From contig NC_135243.1 in NCBI RefSeq assembly GCF_947623445.1, positions 10,914,501-10,978,500 of the forward strand: a stretch of 64,000 bases of DNA, read 5' to 3'. The DNA is from Clavelina lepadiformis. Its lineage: Eukaryota > Chordata > Ascidiacea > Aplousobranchia > Clavelinidae. The position numbers and the translations under genes are program-made. Numbering within the stretch: the stretch's first letter is position 1; the number at the start of each line of letters is the position of its first letter. The notes under the pieces are model-generated. The model had not been told where the DNA came from and did not search any database. It saw nothing but the letters and a program-made list of their open reading frames with translations. Positions 28,484 through 60,342 of the stretch are shown here, piece after piece.

Positions 28484-30844
28484 GTTGGGTTTGTGCTTCA
28501 AAGGCCTATCCTATAACCTTAAACTGCAGAAAACTTTTCCAATTAAAAAAACATCAGTTTTTTAAAATCAAATCTTAGTAAACTGACCACATGCAAAGCT
28601 TAAATCTAGTAATAAAATCTGCTTAATAAATTCTACTTGGTTTAAGCTAATTTTTGGAATAATCTGTCTGGAAAATACAGATGAAATCAATATTTCACAT
28701 ATTCAATTACCAAGCTTTTTGTTAGTATAATATAACTGATATAATGATGTGATTATCTGTGTCTAGTTTAAATAGTATGAAGTACTACAAAGGAAAGCAG
28801 TAACTAGGTTACTACTCATCTCCAATTATTGTGTTACAGTACATTTTAATCAATACGTTAATTTGCAAAAAAGAGATGTGTTCAACATATTATTTTTAAA
28901 CTTTTATTTGATGTCAATCAATTAAAATTAAATTCAAAAAAAATTAGGACATTTTGAAATTACTTTATGCTATTATTCAGTTTCAAAGAGACATTTTGGA
29001 TCAAAATAATTTAAAGTCAGAATTACTTATCTCTAAAATGGCTTTTGCCAAGAAACTGTGCAAAGTATTTGTGTTTAATAACAAATGACCCTGGAATAAT
29101 ATATAATACATACTCAATATTTTGCATATTTTCCAAGGACAAAAATGTGGTGCCTTTCAAAGTAGTATAATGCTCTGTAATTATATAAGTCATCATTACA
29201 GAAAGCTTTTGTTGACGTAAAATCTCAAAATGAGTAATCGACTTTATTGACCTAACAAGAGTTTGACTAGCCATATATATTGGCGTATACGACACCTGTT
29301 TTTAACAAATATATCAGGCCAAAATAAGAGTGGGATTGTAAAAACTTGTCTTTATTATCTAGAAGACACTAAAATGAAATTAAAGATTTACAACAGTACT
29401 AAATTAGCAGACCATCAAAAGCAAAGTAAGGCAGATGAAAAAAGACTGGGTGTCATAAGTCGTACGTTGAAACATGGTAATCTGGTTCGTATTTATCATC
29501 TTAATTGTAATACTGCTGTGTGTGAGCACAATTTAATTAACTTTCGAATTTGCACCACTGTCTACAGTTGATTGACGTGTGGTCAATTCAAATTCCAAGG
29601 TTCAATTTCTTTGTTGACCGCATACTTTCTGGTATGGTATCATTGTGAATACTAAATACCTGACATTTATAGCCAACGTTTCTTAATTTTCATAACCTGC
29701 CAGCAATTAAAAAAATATGAGTAAAATAACAAATTAGACATATCTCGAGCATTTTCTTTTTGCAACCACTGTCAAATACAGTCATTTCCCATAGTAAGGA
29801 ACCTTCTACGAAGTACTAAGAAAAGGGAACATCAACGCACATAATTTGGATGACGTGCAAGTTGGTAAAAAGTTGGCTTCTCGATAATACAAAATGTTTT
29901 TCACAGGAGAAACAACGTAAAGAAGGGCTTATATGCCGGTATATACGGTAAACGATTGCAAAGACCGGATTTGGCGCTTGGGGAGACGGTCATCACTAAC
30001 CAATTACGAGGAATTCCTATTCTTGCACTGAAGCAGTTGAAACAAAACATCTATTCAATTTTTGTGGCAATCTACCAATCGTATGTAGTATTATTATGAG
30101 CATTTTTTACATGTTGTCTTTGAGCGAGTTTAGATTTTCGTTTTGCTAACATGCTTACTTTTCATTTCAAAAATTAAAAAAGGAAAGCAAGTTTATGCAT
30201 CTGTCTGGGCACAAAAATTCGACTCGTATTAATAAATGATGCAGGTTAACACGTTTCGAAGCAATTTGCAGTATTTTACTGTAACATCACTCAGTATTGA
30301 AATCAAATTGCTTTCTAAAGAGATAGATTAAAAATTGGGAATTCATATATAGGCTTAAACAGCAACTTACAATAATTACTTCCAACTTACAATAGGTTAT
30401 CGTATCGTGGGATACTCATTTATGCGCATGTTGTTGATGGCACACAATAGGACAATTTTAACACTAGTGTACTTGCCAAATGCGGCTTGAGTAACATGCG
30501 TCATGCTAACGTATCCTTTGAAAGATGTTTTTCCATTTTTTTATGGCATTATACTGTATTGCTACTTTACAATGTTAGGCCTAGGCTAGGCCCTATATCG
30601 TTGTTTTTTATGTTGGCCGTATAACTACATGTGTTTCATAAGAACAGTATAATGTTTATAACAGTTTCTTCTGAATTATTTTTCGAAATTTAATCAATAT
30701 CTTTCTTCTCCACCTATGATGTAGGATTATAGGCTATACTCGGCATAGTAGCTTCTGTGCTAGATCCGTAGCTTTTATCATTGGCTACACTAGGCTATAA
30801 ACAGTAGTATGGAATATTTCACCTGAGTCAATCTAGCAAACACT
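28484..30844. other. Intergenic region upstream of the USP gene
   Basis: AT-rich sequence. A minus-strand frame at 29023-29295 (about 90 codons, opening MSYTPIYMASQTLV, with YVLYIIPGSFVIKHKY) has no family that I recognise and overlaps an opposite frame, so it is not called a gene. No promoter was identifiable by eye. Confidence 0.4.
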
Positions 30845-35098: not shown

Positions 35099-36856
35099 AT
35101 GTCCGGAAAACCAGTTAGAAAGAAAACGGCGTCGTATGATAAACACTTTCTGTGTCACACAGACACGACTGGTGCAGGAGCAGGAAATTCGTGTAAGCTA
35201 TGCATCAATAAATCATAAATCTATCAGTTTTAGTGTCATGTTACCTTGCTCGCAGATCCTCACCGAAAAGATTTTCAGTGGAACTTGCTGTTTCTAAAAA
35301 GTAGCTGGGGCACTGGCATGCAAACGAAGGATGTCAACATTTCCACCAAACGTACATCTTCTAGTCGTTGCAGTACCAAAACTAAAAAAATACCAACGAG
35401 TTCTGAAAGCGTTAGAATGAGCAGGTCATCGACGAAATCAAAAAATGATGTACCAAGACCTCGGCCAAGGGTAAGTTATTTTCATTACGTATTTTTCACT
35501 GTTATTCAGATGGTACTGAGTGAACCATGATTGAGATAAATATTTAAGTCAACAGTTGGAGTGATTTTGACCCAAGTTAATAGGAATGTCAAAGCATTTT
35601 TCATTTAATTAAAACTTATTTTTGACTGTGGTAGCGCCCATTAGTTTTTGTTGTCTTCAAATATTTACGATACTCAATAATGCTTTGCATACAGCCTATT
35701 ATCTTATTTAGAAAGCCAACACTGCTCCGGACATTAGTTTTCCTCCACTCGGAGAAAGTAAGACTATCTACGCAAATCAAGCTTCAGTTGCTGCACCTTC
35801 TATAAGTTCGAAAAGAGAAAGTAAACGAAAGACGGCGCATTCAGACCGATCAAGAATTACTTTGGATTCTATTCCAGAACATGAACCACGTAATTACAAT
35901 TTTGTGTTTAATAATGATGCAGATACTGTGTAGGCCTAGTAATTTTAAATTATTAAATTTGTCATTCCTATATTTTATGTAAATGTAGGCTACCAAAAAA
36001 ATAATATTGCATTGTTATTGTAGTGACAACGTTAACAGCAAAAGATCATCAACATGGCTCGAAAAGAACGACAAGCAAACAACGTCATCCGCACTTATCA
36101 GCGTCTCCAAACTCCTCAAAATCTAGTATACGATCTGGCTCCGCATCTAAATCAAATTTTAGCCGAGCAACCACGTCTTCTTCTTTGCTATCGTCCCGCC
36201 TTCCGTTCGAGACATACGCATACGAAAGTAGAAACGGAGCATACTCTGCATCCACTTATCGTACATCGACCAGTTATAGAAATAGCTCTCGAATGAGCAC
36301 TTCTCTCTCTTCAATCACAGGATGGGACGAGCATGAAGGGCGACCTGCAATGGAAAAATTTCTTTCAAAAACCTCCAGCAACAGAATAGGTAACGACAGA
36401 ACAGGGATGGTAGAATGCACCATTAAACCAGCTACACTTAAAGCTCTAGTGCGAACGGTTTCTCAAGATCTTAATACAAAAGGTCGAGAATCAAAGCATT
36501 TAGACTCCACAGGCGTTGGCATTAATCTTGACACTAACTACTCTATGCGAAGACATCAACAGTTCACAAATCTCAAATTTGCCGTTGAAGAGTCAGCGAG
36601 TAAAGCCCGACTGCGATCTTCGCTCTATAAAACTGAAGAATCACAAAGGCGACCAACCATATTTCGAAGTAACCTCATGGAAACCAAAAGAAAGAAGTCG
36701 TTCAACCCACGGTATCATGGAGAAATAACACGACCTACTATTGTCGATAAACATGCTCACAAATATCCGTCGGAAGAGCGCTTTCATACTAAATGGGTAC
36801 CAAAGCTGAACGTAAACAATGCAACAGGCCCTTGGACTACATACATTTCCCAGTAA
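35099..36856 (+). CDS. Basic Ser/Thr/Arg-rich protein, four exons, unrecognised
   Basis: Predicted exons: 35099-35192, 35256-35470, 35712-35889, 36024-36856. Every junction is GT-AG, phases match exactly, and the sum is 1320 nt, encoding 439 aa. The N-terminus (MSGKPVRKKTASYDKHFLCH) leads to a short folded-looking stretch (PHRKDFQWNLLFLKSSWGTG). A long low-complexity region rich in Ser, Thr, Lys and Arg follows, with PRPRPR and many SSS clusters. The C-terminus is more ordered (RPTIVDKHAHKYPSEERFHT, then KWVPKL and GPWTTYIS at the end). No transmembrane segment or signal peptide is visible. The composition resembles disordered cytoskeletal or axonemal proteins, but that is only an impression. 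AATAAA at 36875-36880 lies directly after the stop. Confidence 0.78.
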
Positions 36857-38370: not shown

Positions 38371-39815
38371 CTAAACTACACTGTCATTTCCCACGCTGCA
38401 AATGACTTTAGCCTTAATAGCAGTTACTGATGCTTGTACAGGGCCATATGGTATGAGTTCACCATCCACTGCCATATACCCTGTATGTTTACTGAGTGGC
38501 TCCAAGCGAAACGCTTTGCATGGAATAACTAAAGTATCCTGCTCAACGAGTTCCAAATGATTTCCATCCTTAATACTCAAAAGAACTTGAAGTAACCGAG
38601 CTCGTGACTAGAAATATGCAAAAACAAACTCTTCTAAGAGATAATCATAATGGCCATATAATAGTCGTTCAGTACATAATGTTACACGCAAGTGTATTGC
38701 CATCCATGGACCAAGCGGAATGCGTCCGGTTAAGGTTAAGCACAATAAAAGCGATAAACTAAATAAATTAAAAGGTCAGCATTGAATAGGTTTCCTAGAA
38801 AAGTTTGTAACTTACCACAGTAGATTTAAGACAGTAAAGGTATATAGTATCTCCACCGCATTTCGCGTGAGGCATCATAAACATATCTTTTCCTAAATGA
38901 CTTAAATAAATTGCTGAAACCCAAACGAATTCCCCTTCTAAATATTGCCAATCATTGGATAATGAGTTAGTGATTTGCTCATGTTGCAGATACGGGGGAC
39001 AACTTAAATCAGATGTAGTGGGATTTGCAGAATCAGCTTCCACCATTGGCAAGGATCTGGCATTTACAGTAGTGTCAACATGCTTTTCACTGAAATGTAA
39101 CATACACATATTTCAAAAAAGTTCAGCAGGTAAATGTTGAAATACTTGTCAGGCACAATTTCATGTGTCACAATAATCTTGAATATTAAATGCGTATTTC
39201 AATACTTTTTCTCTCTATGTCTTGTTTCCAACTGCGATTCGTCCTCTTCTGAACTTTCCTGTAAACTTGCAACGACTTTATGTTTGCATACATGCTTCTG
39301 TAATTAACACAATTTAATTACATATGAATATTCATTTACTTTCTTGTAAGTAATGAAAACAGAAGTGTGTAGTAAAAAAACGCTTTATTTATTGCAACGG
39401 CTTGAACAGTATTGCCTTTTCAAATATTTTCCAAATGTGTGAGTCATGATCAGGTATATATGACAGTGTTCCTTGATACTTCCGCAGATTAAAGGTTCTG
39501 ACAAGACACCCCAGTGTAAAACGAACATCTCCAATGGCCCTAAACATTAATGGAACAAAACAGTGTAATCAAAAAGAAATTGTTACGAACACAATGCACA
39601 TAAATACATTACAAACCAACATACAGTACAATGCAAATTAGAACCTGTATTTTTCACTTTCGATGTCCACATCAGCAATAAATCCCCATGCAAAGTTTAA
39701 AAACGAATAAAAGTTTCCTTTTTCAGATTTAGTATACACCAGAGATAAATCTCTGGTGGAAAATTTCACAATCTCAAACACTGAGTCATAAATAGGATTT
39801 TCTGACCAGCTCCGC
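38371..39815 (-). CDS. SPHK: Sphingosine kinase C-terminal module 2 (five exons, canonical)
   Basis: Exons 39815-39645, 39539-39416, 39297-39206, 39089-38816 and 38607-38371 continue in phase from the shared exon ending at 48948. They encode [27 protein letters not shown], a variable acidic linker, [20 protein letters not shown], and [15 protein letters not shown] then [12 protein letters not shown]. These match vertebrate SPHK1/2 closely, including the two Arg of the ESEKYR...RFTLG stretch and the Glu of DGE. The donor after 39416 is GC rather than GT (AAAAG|GCAATA), supported by phase and by the conserved GTLSYIP just before it. Intron sizes are small (about 100-210 bp) compared with the 5' part of the gene. 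Confidence 0.88.
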
Positions 39816-42800
39816 CTGTTGCAAGAATTCAATACAATCAAAAACACCACATGACAACACAAATATCAGAATAAAATCCTAACCTAAGCATTGCAGAAAA
39901 TTTTCTACCCTCAAACAGATGACACCAAAATAAACTTCTACAGTGGCAATTGTATTAAAATCGTTTGACTTGGTGCCTGGTTGCTCCACCTATAGTTTTT
40001 AATTTGATCATAAATGCTAAGAAATCGGCTGACTGTCAAGAAATATTTTAGCTTTCATTAGCTTACATAAGCAATTACCACAATTACCAACAATTTACAT
40101 ACCGTATTTACTTGTTTGTAAGCCGCGCTTGATTGTAAGCCGCCCTTGTTTGTAAGCCACATGTGATAGTGTTAAAAATTTAATGTAAGCCGCCCTTGAA
40201 GGTAAGCCGCATATACCAACTGTTTACACGCAAAGCTGAAACTGTTTAAAGGTTTATTTAACTTTCACGCTCATTATGCTCAAATGCATATGACAATTTA
40301 AAATGCACATCACAACTTCACAATTGTCGGTATCAGACAACGCAGGACAGCAAAATATCTTTGGCAAAGTCGACAAGGAAAAAGGCAAAAACAAAAAAGA
40401 AAAAATGTAAGCCGCCTTTGATTGTAAGTCGCCCTTGAATTTAAGCCGCAAACATGATGAAAAAAAAAACTTTGTAAGCCACGGCTTACAATCAAGTAAA
40501 TACGGTAAGCAAAATCATCAAATACAATGAAGATAGCAATACTTATATTGTATAAATACCTAATATATATAACTGCAAGGATTTCACAGTTAAATATATT
40601 CACAAGACTGACTAAATGACTTATATGCCTGGATTGCAAGAGACAAAACACAGATCGGTCAGACCTTTTGGAGTTTTTGTGAATACTAAGAAACTTGTTA
40701 ATAAGTCAACTACACAAATGCTGAAGCGAAATCTGTGTTTGGTGTGCAATTCGTGGTAATATTTGGATTTCAATTAGGAGTTTAGAGCAAAACATATCTG
40801 TCAAAATTTCATAAGTTTAACAATAAACCTTTTCCAACATTTTGGCATTTATCTCATGAAAAATTTTTTTTGCCCTTCCTGAGATATTGGTCGTTGAAAT
40901 CTCATACCCCAAAAAATTCTAATCATAAATTTCAGTGGTTTCTTCAATTTTTTCCACAAAAGAACTGGATTTTTGTAATCCTTGCCCAAAAAACTATAAG
41001 ATTACATATTTTGTTTATTCGTATACTCTTAAAAATAAAGGTTTTATGCAATATTTGCAATGTTTTACAAAAACAGCGCCTCAAGTGGCTTAAATAGAAG
41101 TGGAAGCCAATCTTTATTACACAACTATGGCTCTTACATATGAAAAATTCTAAGAGGGTGGGTTACACAGTGTGATTGTATTATAATAGAATGGTCCTAT
41201 AGAGAACATTTCTTTTTAAGTAATTCTAATTTTGACAAAAATACACAGAATAATGTAATGCACACCAACAATATACCAAGAATGGCAAATTTAAGCTAGT
41301 TTTACAAGAAATTACCATAACTAAGTTTAAAACTGTAAAACAGAAAATAACTTTTCCCAACTACTTCATGCCATAGATAAAGTAAAGCAGAAACGTAGAA
41401 TTACATAAAACACATGCAGCAACTGGTGGTTGTAAGATACAGCACAATTTGTTGTTCAAAGTGTGTGTTTATTCTTTTATATGAGTAGGAAGTATGAGAA
41501 AAACTCACCACCTTAAACATATTTAGGATCATTTTGGATTTATTAACCTACAAAGTACTTGCAGTAACCGTAAAACAAATTTATGGACCCTTTACTAAAT
41601 ACAACTGAGAAAAATATGCTGGTCTGGTTGACTTTTAATATGTGTTTTTTCTAATGTAATAAAATCATATTCTAAAAAATACACAAAATTTAGTTAAAGT
41701 CAGTTTAGTACATAAGATTATATAGAAGAGTGCTTGAAAGACATTTGTTCTACAAAGCAAACAGAACAGCTCGCCAAGAACATATATATAACAAATTCTT
41801 ACAGTGGGGTAAAAAAGTTTTTATTCAGGTTTGGCCTAAATCAAAAGCTTTACTCAGAGACATAAAAATATCACACAGCAGAAATTTTTTGTATTCAACT
41901 GGGCGGGCATTTAACATCATATATCTATAAATTCCGACAAAATACCAATACTTCAGCTTAGTTCACTGTATAAATACATAAAAAATTATTCCCACAAATA
42001 AAATTCAACATACAGTCTCTGGTTAATTAGCTATCTGGCATTTAATTGTTTCATGTAAACAATAAACTATATAAGGCAAAATATATAAAAAGTGTTTGGT
42101 CCATCAATTTCTAACAGTTACATATTACTGTATCATAGATGCAGGAAGGAAATTTAAAACTGATTGTGCAAAACACCACAAGCCATAAGTGAGTTCGTTT
42201 TTTCTGCTGACAGGAACAAAAACCATAAATGTGCAAATGTAAATGAAATAATTTTAAATAAAATTGTATCAGCAACTGTACCAAATGCACATAAACTTCT
42301 GGAGTTCATTTAAAAATGTAAATGAATACAAATAATTGACAGCTACAATACATAAATAAGTTAACGCCAATCTCGGGATCAGTTGTAATACTATGGATTT
42401 GAAATTACTCACACAAACTAGATAATTTACAAATGGAGCCCGTTGTCATCAATTACAAATTTGCGTTGTTTCCAATTCGGATCAAATAGTGGTATGTACA
42501 AAATTATATACATATAAATAGTAAATACTTTTCATATTTTTTGTTGAATAAAATACAACCATAAAAATATTGTTATTTTTGTCATAACGTGTTGTTATAA
42601 GTTTGTAATTTTTGTAGCAATGAATGCAGTAAACTGAGCATGTCAAGCTTAACAACAATGAAGAGAAAAATTTAATTGAATCAACTTAGCTGATATTTCA
42701 AATCACAATTACAATGCTTCAACCTAATGGTGGCCAAAGATAAAGAACTAGAAATATGTACAGTGAGACCTCGTTAATCTGAACCCCGAACAACCGGAAT

Positions 42801-45800
42801 CACCGTTATCTGACACAAAACTGCCGGGAACGGATTTCTTGCTATGCATTTTACCCCTTTTATCCGGAAACCCCGCTGTTCGACTCCGACACATAAGTTT
42901 TGGAACAAATGTGCTAAATAAATAGCAATAAAACCGGATTATTTTAATAAATAGCAATAAAATCTGATAAACCGGATTATTAAGAGTGAAGAGAAAATGA
43001 TTCACGATTGTACTAGATACAGTAGTTTGTTGACGAACACAATAGCCGATACTACGTATAATAATGTTGCAGTTTCACTCTATAAACTCCTACGCATACG
43101 CATACTTTGAATTGAAGTAAGGTGCATACTGCTTTTTGAACACTGTGCTAAATTTGCAAGATTGATTGATTTTTCGCTTTCCGTTAATCCGGATACCCCG
43201 CTAAACCGACTTTTAATGACGAAACAAAGTGGTCAGGATTAACGAGGTCTGACTGTATTATGAAGCAGAAAGTAACCAAACTGCATTTGGCACAACACAT
43301 GAAAGAATACTCTGAGATGGATTTTGTTGCATATACAATGGATTTAATGCTTACATAAACTTAAAATGAACTGAACTGCAAAACCAAAATGGATTCCAAC
43401 ATAATCAAATCCACAAATTTCGCACAGTCAATAATTTGTGCCAAAAACTCTACCAAGCTGTGGATGAACTTGGCATTGAAAAGGACCATATGGCATTTTT
43501 TCACCATCAAGTGTCACAATTTCTGAATGTTTAGAATGTGGTATAATGCGAAATGCTCTACATGGGGTTACAACAACATCACTTGAATTGTCACGCTCTG
43601 TTAAACCAGTTCCATCTTCCATGCTATCCCACAGTTTCAAAAGCGACCGCCGATTTACATTAGCTGTTATTTGAGTTAAAAATAAAAGGCCATCAGACCT
43701 TTTCTTAGTAGGATGTAGTATTGTATCAACAGCAATGTGAGACAAATTAACCCCAGTGACTTGCAAAAATTCACCCTGGCTTACAGACCAAGTGCTAGGT
43801 ACCGGTTCATCAAGAGGAGGTAGTAAATCGTTAACCAGTGTTTCCGTAGCATCTCCAGCAGCAGTGTAATTTTCTTTAATTGCATTGTGAATAGCATTAT
43901 CATTTTGTTCTGCAGATGTTTCCAATGACAAACCGAATTCTTTATCTGCCATGGCAGGCAGGAAACTGACAGTTAAATTGTATCGTCGCATTGTTGCTAT
44001 CCGCATTAGTGCATACAACAACATCCTGGTTTGACTACCTAAAGATCTCAAGCGTTCACTCTCAATGTCAATGTCTGATATCAAACCGATAACAGTTCCT
44101 AAAATTCCATATGTTATTTTAGCTTTTTTCACATGGCTAGTATCGCTCGTCTCCATTGCTAGAATATCCACTTTACAAATCTTTCCACGACAAATTTCAA
44201 ACAAGGATGATGGCAACACATCTGGTAGAGGGTGATGCCTAAAAACAAACATTAAAAAATTACTAAAACATTAAGTTGTAATTATTTCTAGTGCATTACT
44301 TTGTGAACTCAGACGATCCTAGCAAATTTGCTTTGCATACCAAATGCATTATCACTTGCTTTGAAAACATATTTCATTCAACAATTATTTATAAAGAAAT
44401 CATTTGTAAAGAATCATGTACAAAATTTTTGCATGTAGAATTAAATGAAATTAATGAATAAAACAAGAAAGCTTTCCACTGTCAAAAGATTGCTAGTTTA
44501 TATAGTAAATTTCATTTATTGATATAATTTAATTATTAATTAATCCGTGATTACAAAAAAAATATGCAACTAACATGAACACTGCAGAACATGTTGAATT
44601 GATAATCTTAAGTTAGTGTTTAATATTATATTTGATCCACAATGTGTTCAATTTTTCTTAATTTTAGGTCACTGGGCATTTTGTTTACAACTCCTTATCA
44701 AAAAATGTGTTACATATGATTCATAGGCGCTGAAGTTTACAAAATGTAGGGCGGAAAAGTTAATGGGTTCAGATGTTTGGGAATTCCCCATGTCAAGGGT
44801 TGTTGTAAAAACACAAAATAAAATAAAATATACTTCTAATCAGCGTTATTTGCGACAACAGCCATGCTACAAGTTTTTGCTTTTTATACAATTTCTAGAC
44901 TTGTTGGTTATGCTAACCTCCCACTTATAGCACAATTGTATTTCTGTTCATGTCTTAGTGCTTTGCCACATTTTTCTAGCTACGGATCGCCGGGAGCATG
45001 TTCTTTGTTCTACCATATGTCCTACTTTTAGTTCTGTGAAGTTTACGGCAAAAAATGAACGACATTCTTATACGTATTATTCAATCATTATCTATTATTT
45101 AATTATTGTTCGTTTTTTAATTTATTCGCATCAAAAAAACGAAACTGATCTAACAAAATTAGCAGCAACGATTACAGAATATACTTCTATTTGACACATA
45201 ATTGTAATCAAGAACGTTAAAATTTTCAACCCTGCAGTATAGTATCTCGTCTGTGATCTTCCGCACCCTCTTCTAGTTTTGCACTCGCTATTCTCTTTAA
45301 ACTCTTTGCATGCGTCGTCCCAAAGTTATTTTTGGTCATTATGTTTGTCTGTACAGACGTAACAGCAGAGATGGGAAAACACTTCCAACAAAAGCATGTA
45401 TAACCTTTTGACTCGAACTGTATTCATTTGAAACATACACGCAGACATAACATTCAAAACAAGAGTAGTTCTAGTAGTAGTTTTCCGGCGTAGTTCAGCT
45501 TTGCGTCAAGACAGAGCTTGTGAAGGGAACTCTCGATGTGTTTCTTGGCGGCACCTTTGATGTGCTTCCAATCTTTGTATCCTGTCAGCCAAACTGGATA
45601 CTTATGTTTGAAAGTCGAAATAACATCGGGGGTCACATGATTTGCTGAAGAAGCCCAATTGCACACTGCACAAATAGCCACATCTTTTTGTCGATCATAT
45701 TTTATCCATTCGTGCTGTTCAAGCAATCGTAAAACATATTTTTCTGCAGTGCCCGAAGTTGTTAAAGTTTCCACTGAAACACTAATATTGAAACTTTCGG

Positions 45801-48800
45801 ACCAACCAGGAATAGACGCATCTGAAGTCGAAACGTCTTATTTCTCATGCGGCAAACTAACTTCATTGTCGTTTTCCCCTGCTCTATACCGAGCAAAAAA
45901 CGACCTAATCAATAACGACCCTACCTGACCTTTCTACATCATTACGTTTAACAGAGCTCATCTTACTCGCCTTGATCATGTCTAAACAAATTTTCCACTG
46001 GTCATCTTATTGTACGACGTGTTTAATTTAGAGTTCATTTAAAAATAAATTGCATTGTTGTAATAATGGTTATTGTATCGCAAGAAATTCACGTGTTACG
46101 CAATAAAGTTTATTATGTACGTGTAACAAGTAAATGGGTGAGTGCAGAAAGTCCATTAGTTTTGGATTGCACTCTTCAAATGAGTAGCAACAATAAATTT
46201 AACCAAATCATCTTGATTACAAGAACGTAAAATCGCTATTATTTGTTAGAAAAATCCAGGGCGGAAAAATCCGCCCTGTCCGCCCAAGTTCGGCGCCCGT
46301 AGCCAAAATGAAATCAGTAAAAGTTCAGGCATAATTACCATAAATTAATTGAAGAAAATGGATTTTGTAATATTGTCTAGCAGTAATTGTCATACTAGAG
46401 AAATAATGCTATTCAGCAGGGATTCATAATTAAAATGGTGAAAAAAGTACATGCTGATAAGGAGTGGCATAGTTACATAAACTTTTAATTGTACACTTAC
46501 ATACAATAGATTATGTTAAAAATCCTCAAAATCAGTATCAAGCAATATAGTGTTTTTCTATGTTTGCATTAGTAGCGATGGGTATCATTAAAAACAATTA
46601 CTTTAGCTCAATGGATAAATCAGATGCATCAAAATACATTTAAAACGACGACAAATCTACAAAAAGCAAGTGGAACTAAAAGTTAAATGAATGTTAAAAC
46701 AAACTGGCAATATTTGATTGAAAGAGGGCATGTTTAACCAGATACGTAGAGAGATTTAAAAAAAAATCTAAATTACTTACATGGGCTCGAAAATGTAACA
46801 ATTCTCAAAAATTCCCAGACATAAAACAATATATGTACAGTATTTCATTTCCCCTACTGATGAGACATGCATGGAATTAATGAGTAGAATAAAAAGATTT
46901 TAAGCCACAGTATTAGTACACCAGTAAATTCAATTCAGTATTAGATATGCCTTGAATTGTTTGCCAGCTTTTCAATTAATGTAATTATCGCAATGCATGG
47001 TGATGATGATTGGTGAAGCATTCTCAGCATTACTGCTTAACTTTAATTAAGATCATCATTAATTGCTTTTCAGGTTAAGTTCTCACCTTCATCAGCCAAA
47101 GCATCACCAGATGATCAAAACAAGCTTCACAAAGAGAGAACAAACTTTATGAAACGACAACATGTACATGACACGTTCAAGTCAATGCATGATGAATGAA
47201 AATTATCACTGGCACTCTCTCTGAACAAGGGTTAAATTAAATATATTATAAAAAACCTTAATGCAATGGAGACAGAGCTCACAGGTTGCCTGTGATATCT
47301 GAGTGAACACTGCGCTACACCTGCTGTCTTTTGCCTTACATTTTATTGTACATCTCTAATAAATATCATTTAAACCAAACTACGCCTAAACCCTAACTCA
47401 AACTGAAAATATCCATTAAATTACTTGCGTATTCTAATTAAGTAAAATCGAAGACAGATACACATCAAACCTAAGACTCAACTCTGCATTGACATTCGTC
47501 AAGCTCTCTGCATGAATCAATACTTAATCAGATGTGCAACAGTAATGCTGTGAATGACTTTGATATAACAAGTGGTGTGATTTATGAAGATTGATTTAAT
47601 TTTGAGATAATAATGAGTGTCACAGTGGCAGAGCCAGGTTGTTAAATTCCGGGAGAAAATTACGTCAAACAAGTAATAATTTTTGGGATTCCTAAGGTGG
47701 CCATCAATTTAATTATTATTGTGCCACAAATATTTGTTCAGGTTCTGCAGGTAGTTGCAGGTTGGTTAACTGCAAGGATGGGAAGATTGTTTGATGGTGT
47801 GGGATGCAAACATCTAGTTAGAGTCTACAAGATGCCACTTATGATAGTGTTAATCTGGTGGCTGTGTGTACTGAAATGCCAGCCAAGTATGCAATACTCA
47901 GCGACGGAAACTAGGGCTAGAGCTGTTGTCTGAAGAGTAGCAGCCCCAGCATGAGCCAACCAGTTGTCTTACTTAGATAGCCGGTGATGTAAGTTCCTGG
48001 CGTAGTGACTCAAGGTGTCGATGATACGAGAATGATCTATCTAAGGCAGTGGTTCCCTAACTTTTTCAGCTTGTGGCACATTAGAAAAATAATAAACCGC
48101 TCGCGGCACACTTACAAGAGAAGAAAAGTTGCTACAAAAAATTTATGTTCACGTGTTAATGCGATAAATGTGCTGGATGGACATGTGCTTATTTATCAGC
48201 TATTAAAGCACTTTTAAGTCGCATACGCTCGCCTGCATGCCTTATTTTAAATATTTATGCAGTTCTTTTCCAATATTTCAAAAAGATTAGCGGCACACAG
48301 TTTGGTAATCACTGATCTAAGGTTACACAGTTTGGTGATCTGATCTCACGATATTTGGGAACAGGAAAGAAGGTTACAGGTGTGCCCTTGGTGTTAACTT
48401 TAAGATCATACTAGCTTTCTGGTTGTTAAGTTGAAAGGATGCCGACATCGTTTTGATTTTGTTAAGTTTTAATCTCCATTTCTGGAATTAAGCTGGAAAA
48501 GGAGTCATGTCTTGGCGAAGGGTATCCTGCACTGTTTCCCATTCCCTTGCCGAATGCATGGTCACTAAGTCATCCGCGTAGGCGTACTTAATCTACATGA
48601 TGTTGTTCGGTAGATAATGGCCGTAGATGACCAATCGCGGTGGGATATCGTTCTTGGCGCATTGCAGCCTGCTTGAAAGCGAGAACGTGGAAGACAAATA
48701 AAACAAAAAACTTGCACCAAAAGCAGTTTAGTGTTTAAACCTCGTCATAGTCTTGTCACACATGCAAAACTGCGTCAAGAGTTAAAACATGTCTGAATAT

Positions 48801-51800
48801 TTTTCGAGACAATGTGATGTTTAAATATGCAATTTAACAAAGAACATTTCAAGCTTATTAATTGGTAATTAATCTAACCTAATCTTAATCAAACTTGACA
48901 AACATACACAGTTTCAAGAATGGAAAAACTATTAACTTTAAACTTACCCAGTTGATGCATACACAATAGATGCAGCTAAGGCATTGCCTGAACCCCCTGG
49001 TACAATTCCAAGTGGTGTTTTTATTGCCTGTTCCCAATCAACACGATCCATTAACCCATTGATCACCTATTGAAATAAACAATGGTTTTAAATGATTATG
49101 TATGTTTATTTTAGACATCAAATAAACCAAATAAATTTTCTGCATGCAATATATCACAGTAACCAAATACACTCCCTTAAGCCCCATTCTCGATAAGGCA
49201 AATACTTGGCACTAGTCACCGGATTTTTGCTGTTTAAGCAGCTGGTCACAATTACATTGGTCTGTGAAAACACAAAGGCAAATATCGAAACTATGTGCAC
49301 ATTTTCTGAAGCCATCATGGCTGTAGTGTCGCTTTGGGAATTGGTTAGTTCCCGCATGCAGCTTTTCCTATAACAGGAGCAAAACATTATCACAATGATG
49401 AGCCTCTCGACAAGCAAGACCGAAATGCAGCAACAGAAGCGTTTTAGGTGGTAAAATTTTGGGGGTTAGTAGAATATTACTTTACCACAATTAATGCAAG
49501 AGCTTAAATCCAGGTAAGACTTCTGGTAGTTGATGAGTATGGAAAGTGAAATATATCGGGAAACTTTGATATGCATGTCGGGACAGAATAAAAAATAAGA
49601 TTCGACTGTTGACAGCTCACACCACTTTCTTATAATCATTTGCAAATGATTGCAAAGAGGTAGCGGGTTAGCTCAAGCCCTAGCTTCTTTTCATTTATCC
49701 ACAACTCTGCTGCAGATCACAACTGCAACCACTTGCAGACGATGGCAAAAATTGGTCGCAAGTAGGTCATATCTGAAAGTGTCATATCGGGTCTGTGGGA
49801 TGTACATTCAAATTACTGAATCTTACATTAATATATCTTAATAGATTCAAATCCAACTTTTCGTTTTTTAACCGAATCCTTGAAACTGGTAAATGGCTAT
49901 AACGACTTGATTTACTTGTGTCACTGTTTTTGTATGAACACAGGTTTGCAATTGGAAGTTAGGAATTTATGTTACTACTTCTGCTATCAGAGCATACCGA
50001 ACATTATGTTAGTATACTATGTTTGCCACCAGGCATAATTTCAACAACAAAAGATGCATTTCACAAACCTATGTCGGTGAGCATCGTTAGGGCAGATAAC
50101 AATAATAAAGAAATATTTTTGGAACATACAAACATATAAAATTACTTGGATATGAGCAATAACTAAGCAACGATTATGACGTAAGAAACACAAAATTATG
50201 TACTAAAGCAAAGGTAAAACCAAATAGTTAAAGGCAAGCAAATAAATATAGCAGGTTCAAGTAAAATATTGCAAGTATATAGGCAACAGTAGTGTGTACT
50301 TTTTATCGTTTAATACATCCTGTTCGGAGTTACTATAAAACAATTCCATGAATTTTCATTTCCAGCAGTCTGATTTGAAATTAAGTACATGGGAATTTAA
50401 ATTAAGTACATGGGAATTTTTAAGGCATGTTTACTCAAAGAACTCTTTTCGTATCAAACGTTTTTTATGTCAGATTTATGACATAAAAAACAAAGAACAG
50501 CTTCCCTTTTAGGAAAAATAAATGAAAACGTGGTTATGAGCAAAGTTAGTTTTGAAAGATATGCGATCGACTTGAAGAGGGTTTGCGATTGACGTTTTTG
50601 GTACCCCTGATATGAAGCTTACCAGTAACTATTTCTGAAACAATTGCATCTACTAAATTGGTTTTTATATTGAGTCAACTCATTTACATCAAAGTGACAT
50701 ATGAATGAGACAATCTAAAATCCATATATTAGGCGCAGTATTCAATTTATGATGACAACACTCTGTGAATATTGCAAGAAACGTTAGCCATTGACCAAAT
50801 TCCTCATTGCCTAGCAGTCTGCAAAGCTTCCGCAACCATGTTCGACAAAAATAGGCCCAACTCTTAGGCAGAGTATATACTGAGCAGATACATGAGTACT
50901 GATAGAATGCATAACAATTGACAGCACCATATAAACACAATACCATATATTTTCAAATACTACTTTTTTGTTTTATGATCATTTTAAGATTTTGATTGTC
51001 GGCTTATATTTTTTAATCAAATCAACAGACATTCAGACACAGTGCCACAAAGAGAGTTGCAGAAGCTCATGTGTGTGAGTGACTTTCAATAGAGTAATAC
51101 TATAGCATTGTTTGTCTAATAGAGGGCGGATCTAATTGAATCTAATGATTTTTGATCAAGAAAATTCTGTTGTTCACAAAAAAACTAATTACCATCACAG
51201 GAATCTTTTCTAGTGACAATATTAACACAATCAAAAGCTTATATCCTGCAAACTTACTTCATGCACTAAACCATCACCAGACACAATGATGATTCCATCA
51301 TATTTTCCCAATTCAATCTCCTTGGCTAGCTTGCATGCATGACCAGCATACTCTACAAAATACACTGTATTGATTTTTGGCCTCCAGCACATCTTTTGCA
51401 ATGTGATTTATGTTTGTTCATTCAAGTCAAATCATTACAAGTCCAACAAAAAAATTTAACAAAAATTAATCTAACCTGTCTTTACAACAGTTGACTTTAT
51501 TTCAGCTTCACAAAAGACATGCTTTACATGGTCTTTGTAAATTTGCATAGCTTTTCCGCGACCGCTAAATGGATTTATGTACACAACAAAATGTCGCTGT
51601 TCAATTTCAGGAATGCAATCAGCTGTAATATAACAAATCAGTATAAAGTTATACTGTAAATTGAGTATAATACGTAATTGATCCATTTTCCATGCAATGG
51701 TGTTTGTAAAGAGCTATGGTTTACAAACAGGCTTATCTCAGTTGTCGATAGAACCACCATTCTTAACAGATCAACAATTTTCATTCTGAGCATATCAAAA

Positions 51801-54800: not shown

Positions 54801-57800
54801 TCCTGAATCCTGCCACCTCTGGTTTCTTTTTTTGGTTTCGCCTATTTGGCAATAGTCTAAAAATATTAAGGCCCCAAGAATTTTTTTTGGGGTGGAGGAG
54901 GTTTACGATGTGATATCAATATTGTAGTATACATTCATGCAATTTGTCAAAACCTGATGCCTATGGATATACTAATTACTATATAGTATACAGCAATTAT
55001 ATGATAGTACAATAACACGACAATCACATTAGTAAATCTCTTTGCCAATATGTGCATTGTGAACCACAGATAACAGATTGTGCAATACAAACTAACTTTG
55101 GTCTTCAGTCATATTATTTCCGGCTGTAATGAATTTTATTGCCTTCTTCCATTTTTCTGCAAGTGATTTATTTTCACTATCACTATCACAGCACGCTATG
55201 CCAAGTGACCTAAAATAATCACACTAATTAAATAATGAATAACCTTGCGCTAACACAGCCAAATAGTTATATTATACAGTAAAAAGTGACCTACAAAAAT
55301 TACAGAAAAAATGCTTATAAACAATATTTAAATGGACAAAATGGATTTATCACTTTTATTAATTGATATATAGAAACAAACAAAATGAAGCAAACTGATT
55401 ATCTTGTTACTTTTTTGGAAAAACACATGACAGAAAAAATGATAAATTTGAAAAACAATGATAGCACATGTATGATATGAGCTGAATATACATGTTAAAC
55501 TTGCAACATCAGCATAACAATATGGAGAACATTTTTTAGTACTAATCAAAAAAATGTTTTTAGTTAATTATGTAAAGCAACAATTAACATTTGACTCACT
55601 TGGTTGATCGGCATCTTGAATAACCTTTAAAAACTTTCTTCTTTAATGGATAGAAAAAAATGCATAGATACCACTGTGCAGATGTTGTTTTATTGCCTTG
55701 CAAAACATGGCATCCTAGAACATTGATAAATAAGTTTAAAAATTTAAAAAGTAGTAACTATCCACCATCCTTACTTGAAAAGCCCGATACCACTCAAATA
55801 GAAATACTATTCTACCGATGGTAATGTGTTCAGAAGAACTGACAGCACTTGACAATTTCTAACATGGGGTCCATTCAAAGTTTAATATAGACTTTCGAGT
55901 AAAAGACAACACAATGTGATGCTGAAAGACAAAGCAAAAAAGCTTTTGCCCCTATGAGTTGTGCCCAAAATTTACTGACACATATTGCAACAACTTTCGT
56001 TCACTCCCTTAGAGTGTTGCTTTACCACATACAGAAGCACGCTTGACAGGGTTTTATCTTTTTTTATTTTATCGAAATATTCGTGCTCAGATTTTCATAA
56101 ACTTTGAAAAACTTCCGCATCAATAATCTAAAATTAGTTTGACATTTTATATGTGTGGTTGGTGAAAAAAGTAAATGTAAGCGGCAACAAAAAACTGCCT
56201 AGCAAAAATGATGAAATCCAGGAAATGGCCTGCTGCACGTTCGCATTGCAAAGTTATGTGGCAGACACGTCAGTCTACTCTGGAAACCTTTTCATAAACC
56301 TGGGTTTTTTTTTATTGATTGTGTTGCACAATGTGTATGTATTTCTTGAAAATGAGTACTGGGTGTAAAATTTTTCCACTCAAAAACCATAGCTTGTCAG
56401 TACTTACTTTAATAAAGTGAGCATCAATTATTACCTTGTTGATTGTTATATTCCTGTGAGATGTTTCACCTTGTGAGGGGAATCAAACGCTATCAGTTAC
56501 ATATCAAAGATCATGAAGTATTTTAACTACAAAAAGCCTTGCTAAAACTGCTACAAATTTAATAAAAGTTAGGACAAAAAACTTGATATGCAACTTCTAT
56601 CCAAATTACAAATTAACACAAAAATTAAAATTATGCAAAATACTGTTTGTTTTTAATCATGAAATGATCTAGGTCACCTCGATTTATTAATTCTATAGTG
56701 GTACTGATCAACATCTGATTAGTTTTAATCAATTGCAATTAGTCTGGTAATACGAGTAACTGACAAAAAAACATTAGTAGCCTATAACAATGACAAGGTT
56801 CTTCACAACAACCGTAATTACAGGACAGTAGAATAGGTGGTTTGACAAAAGCAAATAGTGTGAGATGGTATGGACATGTGTTGTGATGAGAACCATATCC
56901 TGAAGAGGACACTGGACATTTAGTTAGATAGTCACAGAAAACGAGGGCCACCGAAGAAGCTGTGGGAGCAACGAGTAGAGAAAGAGATAAAGGAAGTTGA
57001 TTTGAGGAAGGAAGTTGATCTAAATTGATTGAGTTGGAAGAGAGGAGCGAAGAAAGTTGCGAAGCAGAGGTGCATCCAGCCACCCTCATTAAGGGCAAAG
57101 TCACCAGATTAAAAACGGACTGATGATGATAATGGTACGAAAATCTAAATGCATCAAACAATCATCAAGTGGAGAAGATAAGATGAAATGTGTGGAATAT
57201 ACTTAACATATTTTTAGTTAAAGCAAACTGATGGCCAATGTAAAGTCGATCGTTAACGTTGCCAACACAACAATGTGTGTTACATATTGAAAAATGCTTG
57301 CAATATAATTGGATGACTCTGATAACTAATTTACTCCAACTAAGTTTCCCACAAATGTTTTTATAAAAACGCCTGAGGCCTATGGAGCTTACCACAGGGA
57401 GTTGTGTCGAAAAACAAAGTTGCCTAATTAGTCTTGGTTGGTCAAGCGTGTATCACTGAACTTATTGTGGGCAGGTTTTAAGAACAAAATAGCTTGGGAA
57501 TTTTATTGCAATAAATAAAATAACGTTTAATAAAATACCATTAGCTTTCCACGGAAAATGTTTAACAATTGACATTTCAGTATGAGCAATGTTCAGATTT
57601 GCAAAAGATATCTTTATCTCAGCCTCAGTGGTCATCAGCACTATCATATTATAAGTTAACTATAGACAAAATAGCCAAATTGTCTTTACTTCTGCCACAG
57701 GTCTCAAGGAGTCAAAGTTAATTGGTTAGCTAAGTCTAAAGCTATACTCGAACACCATAAAAAATATAAAAAAGAATGATCTCGATTAATTTTATTGCAA

Positions 57801-60342
57801 AGCGCCAGACTGGGAAGAGTCGTGAGCTTATGACTCTTTTTTGCATTAGGGTCATTCCATGAAAATGAGACGAATAGGCTAAAAAAAATATTTTGAAGTT
57901 CAAAGTTGATGTAGGAAAATATGATTCGACAATAACTTGAGAACGTTGCTTTTGGCGTTGTTTTTTTATGACCAGGCCCCTGTTTTGTAAAAGAAAAAAA
58001 AATATTACAAAACACTTTGAAAACATTACTTTTTAACTGCAGGGCATGGCCTGCTTCTTACATTCTTATTTATATATATAATCTTCGAGGGAAGTTTAAA
58101 GTAAGTCTGTGGTAGGTACAGAAACGTCGGCAATCAACCACGGCAGAAAACCAAAGTCAAACCCGTTACCAGATCCTCTTTTATAAACTTATTACTGCGC
58201 ACTCAAGCAGCCATACTTCAAGACAATATTTTGGGTAAATAACCGCCAGGAAGCAAAGCATGAATGTGGAATAAAGTTTGTTCTTCTATATTTTTGAAGT
58301 TGGTGAAATCCATGCAATTCATTACATTACAAGTCAAAATTTATTTGTTTTACTGACACTGTAGTTGGAATTGTTCTGCTATATTAGCATTGTGTATTGG
58401 TCACAGTGCCTAAGCTTTGTTGCATAATTCATAAGTGCAGCAAGCATAAATGAAGTTGTAGTGGATGCCCAAACTTCAAAAGGTGAGGGTTCAGATGGGT
58501 TGGCTGCAAGTAATAGCGTTCCGAGTAATAGCATGCAAGTGCAGTAATTCTAAAAGTTCATAGCATATGAACAGGTTATTTAAGTTATTGTACTGTGAAG
58601 TTATATACTGCTTTCAATACAGTTTAAATAATATTTGGAATTCAAGCTAAATACCGTAAGGTGCTATGTTCAACATATCATGGGCATTTTACCAAGTTAA
58701 CTGGTAACATGTATCGTATTTCTTCAAATTTAAGTGACTTGGAAACATAAATACAAAAACTGCACGATATACAGTTATTGAACTATTTGAAGAAACACGA
58801 TATCGGTTGCCAAGATAATGCGTCTTAATACAACACCAAAACCTATATAAGTAGGATTATTTTTACCGGTAGTGTACTGTACTCATTGGTGATTTTCATT
58901 TAATAGCATTTTAACAATTGTGGTTTTGTAGAGTGTCTTCTAAAACTATGTTGCTACATCAGATATAATGCATTCCTTCATTTAATTTTTCATCAAAAGC
59001 GTGGTTGGGACGAAAAATATCAAGCTAGTTGTAATTAGCATACACTAATGAACAGGAAAATGTGACAGAGCCGAGATGGTTTAAATCATGCTCAAAAATA
59101 ATTAAGATAATAATTGCTGGTAACAACTAGCATGGCCACGAAACCCGTAATAAATTTACAAAACATAAGTTAAAAAAGCAAAGTTAAGCAGTAAAGCAGG
59201 TTCAACAAATCGTTGAAAATTGTGTCAATGCTGTACTTCAGTGGATTGGAAAACCTACCATTAAACAAACCCCAGCTATGTATGTTGAAATGTTTAAGCG
59301 ACTTAACCCATAGAAATTGGAGCACACACATTTTCGATGAAAAGACATACATATTTATTTCCTGGAAAAAATTAATAATACCAGGATGTCTTATAAATAC
59401 TGATATCTTAATGACTTTGCAAAGATCATAAATGGTGACGTCAAAGTTATTTTAAAAAGTAAATATTTCATTCGAAAATTACAAACATTAAGTGACGTAA
59501 TGATAGTTGTAAACTACTTTAGTCCATCGAACATTAAATTAGCAGTTACGGTTCCCTGCATTGTTAACTATTACGACATTACTGCAAGCGCGTTACAGTA
59601 CTAGCAAAATTCTCTGATATCAGAGAAGTAAATATTTAGGCCTTTAAATATTTTGCATTTCCTTATAAAAAAATAGGATCATTTTTTAAAAATATGGGTG
59701 AGTAAGTGTGTGGGGGCGCGCAAGAGCAAGACAAGGATTAAATACAAACCAGGGCTGTACAGCATATCTCAGGCTATTCACGCCAGTTATAGAGAGGTCT
59801 TGCATTTGGTTTGCAAAAGTTGGTTGGAGTGGACAAACAAGTGTCGATTGTTCTGTTAGTGGGCTGGTATATAAAACAAAATGTTTAGTTATCCTACAAT
59901 TACAGTAGTTCAATTTCAATACAGTTTTCGTGGGACACAAACCCTCACATTTCAAAATTCCTTTAATACTCAATAAAACAGTATTACTTGAATTAAAAAC
60001 GTTATTGACACATTGCCTGTGCAACACTCCAAGTGACTGCCATGTTCAGTCCCAAAAATTCAAGAGAGACTGCACTCATTGCAATACTGTAATGCAATGT
60101 AGTACACTGCATGAGAAATTTATTGCACATGCTCAAATAAATAAAATCAAACAAAACTGAAATAAAACTTGTAAAATCGGTTAAAAAAGATACTTACCAA
60201 TGACATCAGCTAAACTGATAACTTCAGGAGCTCCTTTTGTTAGTTTGTTTTTAATGGTCAGGTTTTTATTTGTCAATAGAACTTGTAAAGGGACTTTTTT
60301 TGGGTAAAGCAAAAAGTCACCTGACAAAAGTACCTTATCCAT
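38371..60342 (-). CDS. SPHK: Sphingosine kinase with two alternative C-terminal modules
   Basis: A lipid kinase that phosphorylates sphingosine to sphingosine 1-phosphate. Shared exons: 60342-60198, 55714-55600, 55209-55097, 51622-51476, 51352-51258, 49066-48948. They carry an N-terminal segment ([20 protein letters not shown]), the nucleotide-binding motif NPFSGRGKA (about residues 141-149), SGDGLVHE (about 198-205) and [11 protein letters not shown] (about 228-238). After residue 245 the reading phase fits either the single exon 44238-43428 (514 aa in total) or the exon set 39815-39645, 39539-39416, 39297-39206, 39089-38816, 38607-38371 (543 aa in total). Both modules end in the family DGE motif. 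Exon 1 may be preceded by an untranslated exon, since an acceptor (TTATAG) lies just upstream. The introns are packed with transposon relics. Confidence 0.93.
40100..40507. mobile_element. TIR MITE with GTAAGCCGC repeats
   Basis: Inverted ends TACCGTATTTACTTG and CAAGTAAATACGGTA bound the element; the TA on both sides may be the target duplication. Next to each end are several copies of TTGTAAGCCGC.CTTGA in direct array. It lies between the two kinase C-terminal modules. Confidence 0.8.
42761..43255. mobile_element. pogo/Tigger-type MITE
   Basis: The left end CAGTGAGACCTCGTTAATCT and the right end (reverse complement CAGTCAGACCTCGTTAATCC) form terminal inverted repeats, flanked by TA on both sides. 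Inside are degenerate copies of AACCGGAT and CGTTAATCCGG words. It lies just 3' of kinase module 1. Confidence 0.82.
43428..44238 (-). CDS. SPHK: Sphingosine kinase C-terminal module 1 (single terminal exon)
   Basis: One exon of 811 nt with a good acceptor (TTTTTAG) and its own stop codon lies between the last shared exon and module 2. It encodes [46 protein letters not shown], a linker, [19 protein letters not shown], and [15 protein letters not shown] then [12 protein letters not shown]. Order and spacing match the C-terminal half of sphingosine kinases, but the AWGF signature is replaced by TVIG, and similarity to module 2 looks low. An ATTAAA signal (43348-43343 on the minus strand) follows the stop by about 80 nt, supporting use as an alternative last exon. 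Confidence 0.87.
44726..46310 (-). mobile_element. Probable hAT element relic with a TTF-type zinc-finger ORF
   Basis: A minus-strand frame (45774-45454) reads [19 protein letters not shown] and later [16 protein letters not shown]. This is the pattern of TTF-type/BED-like zinc fingers found at the N-terminus of hAT-derived (ZMYM/DUF4371-type) proteins. GC-richer ends AGGCGCTGAAGT (left) and CGGCGCCCGTAG (right, inverted) both sit next to GGGCGGAAAA and may be decayed terminal repeats. It is in the last large kinase intron and the transposase is largely gone. Confidence 0.5.
47690..48660 (-). pseudogene. Non-LTR retrotransposon reverse transcriptase relic
   Basis: On the minus strand the RT signature [13 protein letters not shown] is followed by [23 protein letters not shown] and FQLNNQKAS. 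After an interruption comes the thumb-like segment [20 protein letters not shown], then [16 protein letters not shown]. This order is standard for LINE-type reverse transcriptases. In-frame stops and a hAT MITE (48047-48314) disable it. It lies in a sphingosine kinase intron. Confidence 0.8.
48047..48314. mobile_element. hAT MITE with a perfect 8-bp target duplication
   Basis: Ends CAGTGGTTCCCTAACTTTTT and, inverted, CAGTGATTACCAAACTGTGT are typical hAT termini, each followed inward by a GGCACA/GTGCCG motif. The exact duplication ATCTAAGG flanks it (48039-48046 and 48315-48322). It splits the LINE RT relic. Confidence 0.9.
54560..54840. repeat. Minisatellite, about 115-bp unit with internal half-units
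   Basis: The core CCCTG.CGTAGAGGCAG recurs at 54576, 54646, 54691 and, degenerate, 54762. Alternating spacings of 70, 45 and 71 bp indicate a roughly 115-bp dimeric unit present about 2.5 times. A diverged last copy (CCTGCCACCTCTGGTTTCTT) ends near 54840. Confidence 0.72.
56820..57130 (+). pseudogene. 3' end of a LINE ORF2 relic
   Basis: Plus-strand translation gives [12 protein letters not shown], then [20 protein letters not shown] and further basic text. This matches the common C-terminal motif of RTE/L2-type LINE proteins (RW.GHV, then RRGRPKK.W). Stops interrupt it. It lies in kinase intron 1. Confidence 0.72.
58981..59147 (-). repeat. Dispersed repeat copy 3
   Basis: In reverse orientation it matches the copies at 7851-8067 and 10358-10540: GCTAGTTGTTACCAGCAATT, then TGAGCATG, TTTCCTGTTCATT, TAGCTTGATATTT and ACCACGCTTTTGATGAAA. 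Confidence 0.72.

What the first reader, a model, noticed from the sequence alone, without database searches (positions are those of the whole stretch)
38371..49066. Sphingosine kinase gene with two alternative, phase-compatible C-terminal catalytic modules
The shared exon ending at 48948 leaves two bases of a codon. Both the acceptor at 44238 (one 811-nt exon with its own stop) and the acceptor at 39815 (five exons) restore the frame and give full-length kinases of 514 and 543 aa. The modules align motif by motif ([14 protein letters not shown] versus [29 protein letters not shown] versus [19 protein letters not shown] versus VDGE) but are strongly diverged. So one gene may make two kinases with the same ATP-binding half and different lipid-binding halves. 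Module 2 is canonical. Module 1 has lost the AWGF signature, suggesting altered substrate or membrane binding. I know of no described sphingosine kinase with this arrangement, but could not search.
Basis: partly seen in the sequence, partly recalled or inferred. Interest (0 to 1): 0.85.

Follow-up and report, generated by a model that had tools for sequence, protein, structure and literature searches.

The report
Sea-squirt sphingosine kinase, swappable lipid-binding halves
In a sea squirt, one gene appears to make two versions of an enzyme that produces a lipid signal, by joining the same ATP-binding front half to either of two different lipid-binding back halves, an arrangement seen in other tunicates too and apparently several hundred million years old.

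Summary
The window is Clavelina lepadiformis (kaClaLepa1.1). Other tunicates have the same form: Ciona 'isoform X2' is shared half + M1, 'isoform X1' the identical shared half + M2; an unnamed species has both as intron-free contigs; a stolidobranch-like M1 protein exists. In trees the first halves group by species, the second halves as one M1 and one M2 clade, together beside vertebrates. So the 3' half was duplicated once, in early tunicates, probably before the roughly 390-My-old stolidobranch split. M1 keeps the tested catalytic and nucleotide residues and is predicted to fold like SPHK1, but its lipid pocket is remodelled. The public Clavelina annotation cuts the gene in two, leaving M2 without an ATP-binding half. 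Best reading: alternative last exons give two active sphingosine kinases with different lipid-binding halves. Not shown: RNA junctions in Clavelina, activity, substrate difference. The searches made listed no description of it. New variant of a known kind.

The parts
60198..60342 (-). shared exon 1 (start codon; N-terminal region of SphK)
   Evidence: tblastn with P0001; exon chain solved for splice sites and open frame
55600..55714 (-). shared exon 2
55097..55209 (-). shared exon 3
51476..51622 (-). shared exon 4, start of DAGK_cat domain (NPFSGRGKA)
51258..51352 (-). shared exon 5, catalytic SGDG (Asp81 of human SPHK1)
   Evidence: the PF00781 hit of this gene in the own genome (C4:10965755-10965868, window 51255-51368) lies here
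48948..49066 (-). shared exon 6, [10 protein letters not shown]; ends in phase 2 with GG|gtaagt
43428..44238 (-). module 1: single alternative terminal exon, 269 codons plus stop; SphK C-terminal domain with remodelled lipid pocket
   Evidence: same structure in public P0001; Ciona X2 orthologue P0002; M1 clade
43343..43348 (-). ATTAAA, possible poly(A) signal 80 nt after the module 1 stop
   Evidence: pattern scan only; weak
39645..39815 (-). module 2 exon a ([17 protein letters not shown])
   Evidence: Ciona X1 P0008
39416..39539 (-). module 2 exon b, GC-AG donor
   Evidence: junction fits P0121
39206..39297 (-). module 2 exon c (variable acidic linker)
38816..39089 (-). module 2 exon d
38371..38607 (-). 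module 2 exon e with VDGE and stop
39884..39891 (-). 8-nt ATGCTTAG that would give the start of the public 301-aa module-2-only protein P0121; probably an annotation artefact
   Evidence: the splice itself is inferred

Best explanation
This is a single sphingosine kinase gene with alternative last exons. The primary transcript contains six shared exons coding the N-terminal region and the ATP-binding DAGK_cat half, followed by two mutually exclusive 3' modules. Splicing exon 6 to the near acceptor and ending the RNA after module 1 gives a 514-aa kinase. Skipping module 1 and splicing to the far acceptor gives a 543-aa kinase. Each module supplies a complete C-terminal half: lipid pocket, the Arg pair that contacts ATP, and the DGE motif. 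Shown: anatomy, phase, presence of both modules at the same junction in other tunicates, a single origin of each module clade, intact tested catalytic residues in both. Inferred: that both RNAs are made in Clavelina, that both proteins phosphorylate sphingoid bases, and that the remodelled pocket of module 1 gives a different lipid preference, localisation or regulation. In effect tunicates gained two sphingosine kinases by doubling half a gene, where vertebrates have two genes, SPHK1 and SPHK2.
For: In-frame exon chains of 514 and 543 aa. The shared half is found once in the window, with no second ATP-binding half before module 2. Of 9 DAGK_cat places in the own genome, this gene is the only SphK seen: two others are a ceramide kinase and an acylglycerol kinase by Pfam; about 3.1-3.2 kb around five more does not match the shared half, M1 or M2 at E 0.01; the ninth place was given no locus. 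Ciona X2 (P0002) and X1 (P0008) are identical over residues 1-252 and carry M1 and M2. P0006 (M1, 1625-nt contig) and P0123 (M2, 2330-nt contig) share residues 1-256 with one difference. N-half tree: proteins group by species. C-half tree: M1 6 rows 100/98, M2 6 rows 100/97, together 99/96 beside 8 vertebrates. Asp81, Asp178, Glu182, Arg185, Arg191 in 6 of 6 M1, 6 of 6 M2, 17 of 17 others; DGE in 4 of 4 M1 rows that reach it. P0001 model pLDDT 88.2; its first 17 PDB matches are SPHK1 chains, TM 0.89-0.93 by target.
Against: No RNA reads could be mapped. The public Clavelina annotation lists M2 as a separate 301-aa protein (P0121), not as an isoform. The Ciona isoform labels are database names whose RNA support I could not see. 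Styela and Phallusia showed only M2 proteins, and C. savignyi only an M1 protein, in the lists seen (120 best of 724 and of 720). The third protein search, on Ciona M1 alone, returned only 2 Ciona proteins and missed P0001, so it had little sensitivity. Without six long, partial or odd rows (22 rows left, only 2 of them M1) the M1+M2 union is 96/91, but grouping M2 or M1 with vertebrates is not rejected at 0.05 (p 0.054 and 0.059). Two M1 rows (P0006, P0007) have long branches.
Confidence: 0.88

Rival explanations
1. Two genes: the shared exons plus module 1 are one kinase gene, and module 2 is an independent downstream gene with its own promoter making a 301-aa protein, as the public annotation has it.
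Against: P0121 has no DAGK_cat match, would start from an 8-nt ATG mini-exon, and could not be a kinase although M2 keeps Asp178, Arg185, Arg191 and DGE. Ciona isoform X1 joins the shared half to M2, and P0123 does the same in another species.
Confidence: 0.06
2. Module 1 is a decaying partial duplicate or a decoy terminal exon that only lowers the level of the real kinase through early polyadenylation.
For: M1 has long branches and lost Trp171, Phe192 and His311. None of the 4 M1 proteins scanned reaches Pfam's YegS_C cut-off, though neither does any of the 4 M2 proteins.
Against: An open 269-codon frame with the tested catalytic residues in 6 of 6 M1 rows (DGE in 4 of 4 that reach it), retained in several tunicate lineages; Trp303 and Gly311 fixed in 5 of 5 rows point to constraint, not decay. 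Two amino-acid differences in 269 between two Clavelina sequences, as in M2 (2 in 298).
Confidence: 0.08
3. Both isoforms make the same S1P with the same substrate range; the module swap changes only place or control (membrane targeting, partner binding), not chemistry. (A variant of the best explanation, not exclusive of its anatomy.)
For: Tested catalytic and nucleotide residues identical; both predicted folds match SPHK1.
Against: M1 and M2 residue sets are disjoint at 9 of 21 pocket positions versus 32 of 184 other positions (Fisher p 0.017), so divergence is concentrated in the lipid pocket. The pocket list comes from a docking paper, and p is modest.
Confidence: 0.4
4. The modules are older than tunicates (chordate or bilaterian) and one was lost elsewhere.
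For: In the reduced set M2+vertebrates (p 0.054) and M1+vertebrates (p 0.059) are not formally rejected.
Against: M1+M2 is one clade at 99/96 and 96/91, and both alternatives are rejected at p 0.013 in the full set. None of the 17 non-tunicate rows aligned has the M1 insertion. Amphioxus and echinoderms were not sampled.
Confidence: 0.08

Closest known systems
Sphingosine kinase SPHK1/SPHK2 (SPHK1 structures 3VZB, 4L02, 4V24)
   Same: Domain order, catalytic Asp81, Asp178, Arg185, Arg191, DGE, and predicted fold of both products.
   Different: Vertebrates have two whole genes; here one gene has one ATP-binding half and two C-terminal halves. M1 has an extra residue beside Arg191 and a changed pocket.
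Ciona intestinalis 'sphingosine kinase 1 isoform X1/X2' (public database entries)
   Same: Same shared half, same junction residue, M1 and M2 in the same clades.
   Different: Present as named isoforms in the database; no paper describing them was listed. About 50% identical to the Clavelina products.
Alternative last exons and tandem-duplicated mutually exclusive exons (for example PKM, FGFR; recalled, not from a call)
   Same: Two homologous alternative segments after a shared exon, chosen by splicing.
   Different: Here the duplicated unit is a whole C-terminal enzyme half of about 270-300 aa with its own stop codon, one copy in a single exon and the other in five.
Ceramide kinase and acylglycerol kinase
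   Same: Same DAGK_cat superfamily; both present elsewhere in this genome (L001, L002).
   Different: Their C-terminal domains match CERK_C and AGK_C, and M1 and M2 had no tblastn match in these two loci at E 0.01.

Membership tests
Sphingosine kinase | DAGK_cat domain with SGDG | tested here: met
   PF00781 in P0001 88.5 bits, P0002 96.2, P0008 95.1; SGDG in the shared half
Sphingosine kinase | Asp178, Glu182, Arg185, Arg191 and DGE in the C-terminal half (human SPHK1 numbering) | tested here: met
   6 of 6 M1 and 6 of 6 M2 rows for the first four; DGE in 4 of 4 M1 rows reaching it and 6 of 6 M2
Sphingosine kinase | Closest solved relatives are SPHK1, not CERK, AGK or DGK | tested here: met
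   Sequence: P0001 to 3vzb 1.1e-56 against AGK 1.7e-13; M2 alone matches only SPHK1 chains, 8.9e-34. Fold: 17 SPHK1 chains rank first for both models. The M2 model is Ciona's (P0008), not Clavelina's
Sphingosine kinase | Lipid-pocket and motif residues Trp171 (of AWGF), Phe192, Phe303, His311 | tested here: not met
   M2 keeps Trp171, Phe192 and His311 in 6 of 6 rows but has Leu303. M1 keeps none of the four. Among the 17 other rows these are present in 16, 17, 16 and 16. A pocket feature, not the catalytic definition
Sphingosine kinase | Phosphorylates sphingosine | not testable with these tools
   Needs protein and assay
Alternative last exons of one gene | Shared upstream exons; two acceptors in compatible phase; each branch ends in its own stop | tested here: met
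Alternative last exons of one gene | Both RNAs produced from one locus | tested here: inconclusive
   Ciona isoform entries and two contigs of another species; no reads in Clavelina
Alternative last exons of one gene | Poly(A) site after the proximal module | tested here: inconclusive
   ATTAAA 80 nt after the M1 stop, pattern only

The most novel reading that the evidence does not exclude
Early tunicates independently evolved the equivalent of vertebrate SPHK1/SPHK2 by duplicating only the lipid-binding half of their single sphingosine kinase gene. Splicing switches one catalytic half between two substrate pockets, so cells can change which sphingoid base is phosphorylated, or where, without changing transcription of the kinase.
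Probability: 0.4. Interest if true: 0.78.

Novelty: new variant of a known kind. Interest (0 to 1): 0.62.

Why it matters
S1P made by sphingosine kinase guides germ-cell homing in the sea squirt Botryllus (PMC4606877, passages seen). That work used sphingosine kinase inhibitors and FISH for sphk; the word 'splice' does not occur in its text. If tunicates have two kinases from one gene, such work must separate the isoforms. The case gives a natural pair of enzymes identical in the ATP-binding half and different in the lipid-binding half, which isolates what the C-terminal half does. It also shows two routes, whole-gene and half-gene duplication, to two sphingosine kinases in sister chordate groups, and points to a probable split gene in the public Clavelina annotation.

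Tried and rejected
Separate gene for module 2: rejected because no ATP-binding half precedes it in the window and two other species join M2 to the shared half. Module 1 as another kind of lipid kinase (CERK or AGK type): rejected by PDB matches and tree. SPHK1-like versus SPHK2-like origin of the two modules (an idea from motif resemblance, SDIDIESER versus ADVDIESEK): rejected, both modules lie together outside the vertebrate pair. A search for module 1 alone in the protein collection was uninformative: it missed the known Clavelina protein. A search for ascidian sphingoid bases (10 of 1,837 papers listed) gave nothing specific in that list. Reverse-transcribed origin of the intronless M1 exon was considered; it cannot be told from intron gain in M2 without exon maps of other species, which I could not reach. 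The pocket as a whole is not clearly more altered in M1 than in M2 relative to other animals: residues also seen in the 17 other rows make up 65 of 113 M1 pocket cells and 76 of 126 M2 pocket cells, against 491 of 750 and 667 of 888 elsewhere in the C-terminal half.

Rows left out: P0004 (fused Ciona model) was kept out of the trees; P0025 was dropped because it lacks the GSGNAL motif (which then stopped with an error; rerun). The 28 tree rows are a choice by hand from the 210 proteins listed. One search left out six rows (P0006, P0007, P0010, P0003, P0123, P0037).

Full report
What the window is. The best protein match is from Clavelina lepadiformis. The contig holding the window is 25,070,715 bases long, exactly the N50 scaffold of assembly kaClaLepa1.1 (PMC10884593, passages seen). 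The genome held here has 209.06 Mb in 95 contigs against 210.1 Mb in 102 scaffolds in the paper, and its contig C1 is 5,500 bases shorter than the longest scaffold there.

The gene. On the minus strand six shared exons (60342-60198, 55714-55600, 55209-55097, 51622-51476, 51352-51258, 49066-48948) code 245 residues, the last completed by the next exon's first base: an N-terminal region and the ATP-binding DAGK_cat half. Exon 6 ends in GG of a codon, so any acceptor base gives glycine. It joins in frame to module 1 (M1; 44238-43428, one exon, stop included, total 514 aa) or to module 2 (M2; 39815-39645, 39539-39416, 39297-39206, 39089-38816, 38607-38371, total 543 aa). One M2 donor is GC; the public M2 protein fits the same junction. 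The introns from exon 6 to M1 and M2 are 4709 and 9132 nt. The M1 acceptor has 15 pyrimidines in the 20 bases before its AG, the M2 acceptor 12, so M1 may be the stronger site; this is inference. An open frame alone would not be telling: 7 of 519 AG sites outside the M1 frame also open 101-125 codons in the needed phase.

Public annotation. The database holds P0001 (514 aa, 7 differences in 514, shared half plus M1) and P0121 (301 aa: MLR plus M2, 2 differences in 298), both listed with a contig length of 10,791,168, so from another assembly. P0121 has no DAGK_cat match, and its first residues fit an 8-nt stretch at 39891-39884. I read this as a gene split by the annotation.

Other tunicates. 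P0006 and P0123 come from short contigs (1625 and 2330 nt) that hold reading frames of 484 and 515 aa without introns, so they are almost certainly cDNA (inference); they share residues 1-256 with one difference and carry M1 and M2. P0007, also unnamed, has M1 and groups with Styela in the N-half (96/95). P0010 and C. savignyi P0003 are partial M1 proteins. Styela P0122 and Phallusia P0005 have M2. Another Ciona model, P0004, fuses a stretch of M1 and then of M2, which suggests the same order along the gene. These come from the best 120 of 724 and of 720 hits; the third search was insensitive.

History. 28 rows, chosen by hand, were used in each tree. In the N-half tree M1 and M2 proteins of a species sit together (M1 and M2 labels need 6 changes each for 6 rows). 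In the C-half tree M1 (6 rows) is one clade at 100/98, M2 (6 rows) at 100/97, and both together at 99/96, beside 8 vertebrate rows; M2 with vertebrates and M1 with vertebrates are each rejected (p 0.013). Two M1 rows have long branches. With six long, partial or odd rows removed (22 left, only 2 of them M1) M1+M2 stays at 96/91, but the alternatives reach p 0.054 and 0.059. The simplest history is one duplication of the 3' half in early tunicates. If P0007 is a stolidobranch, the duplication predates the split dated at 389 +/- 32 My in PMC5899321 (passages seen). No appendicularian was among the rows.

Function. Human SPHK1 numbering was set by a shift of 4 from the chain printed; the residue letters so numbered agree with the names in PMC10599685. 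In M1, Asp81, Asp178, Glu182, Arg185, Arg191 are kept in 6 of 6 rows, and DGE in 4 of 4 rows that reach it. The P0001 model has mean pLDDT 88.2, and its first 17 PDB matches are SPHK1 chains; the Ciona X1 model (pLDDT 80.7) gives the same. M1 has one extra residue just before Arg191 in 6 of 6 rows and in none of 6 M2 and 17 other rows (one of these, Solemya, has an extra residue at a different place nearby). It has Trp303 and Gly311 in 5 of 5 rows that reach them, where M2 has Leu and His in 6 of 6 and others Phe and His in 16 of 17 each; Phe192 and Trp171 are lost in 6 of 6. Of the 25 pocket positions listed for PF-543 in PMC10599685 (passages seen; a docking study), I left out Asp81, Ala115, Asp178 and Gly342; at the other 21, M1 and M2 share no residue at 9, against 32 of 184 other positions from residue 130 on (Fisher p 0.017). 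So the two modules differ most where the lipid tail lies. That M1 is an active kinase with another lipid preference is therefore plausible, not shown.

Copies. The family search found 9 DAGK_cat places in the genome. Two are ceramide kinase and acylglycerol kinase, one is this gene, five loci of 3.1-3.2 kb do not match the shared half or the modules at E 0.01, and one place was given no locus. No second SphK was seen. A whole-genome protein search did not complete.

In print. Searches for sphingosine kinase with Ciona and alternative splicing (1 paper), with Ciona, with tunicate or ascidian terms (20 of 33 listed), with mutually exclusive exons, and with alternative last exon or urochordate listed no paper whose title or abstract start describes this gene form. 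Of these I saw passages of PMC4606877 and PMC8495957. The library lacks most subscription journals.

Verdict. The gene form is real as sequence, old, and present in the several tunicate lineages seen. Expression in Clavelina and biochemical difference are untested.

Noticed in passing
window 39884-39891 and public protein P0121: The public Clavelina annotation presents module 2 as a separate 301-aa protein ('Sphingosine kinase 1' in UniRef) without an ATP-binding half, apparently a split gene model.
   Followed up: yes
public protein P0004 (F6YIB7, Ciona): A database model fuses part of module 1 and part of module 2 into one 608-aa protein, probably a wrong join of the two alternative ends.
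   Followed up: partly
window 63144-63464 +: Piece of a Tc5-type transposase DNA-binding domain (HTH_Tnp_Tc5).
   Followed up: no
window 45454-45837 -: 127-aa open frame inside the intron before module 1, no Pfam match; looked transposon-like by eye.
   Followed up: partly
window 8651-9328 +, 27026-28510 -, 60993-62294 -: Other genes in the window: NFACT-R_1 protein, ubiquitin hydrolase exon, C2H2 zinc-finger protein.
   Followed up: partly
L001, L002: Ceramide kinase and acylglycerol kinase genes of the same genome; the acylglycerol kinase lies in one open frame of 443 codons.
   Followed up: partly
window 36005-36856 +: 283-aa serine-rich open frame beyond the 3' end of the kinase gene on the other strand, no Pfam match.
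   Followed up: no
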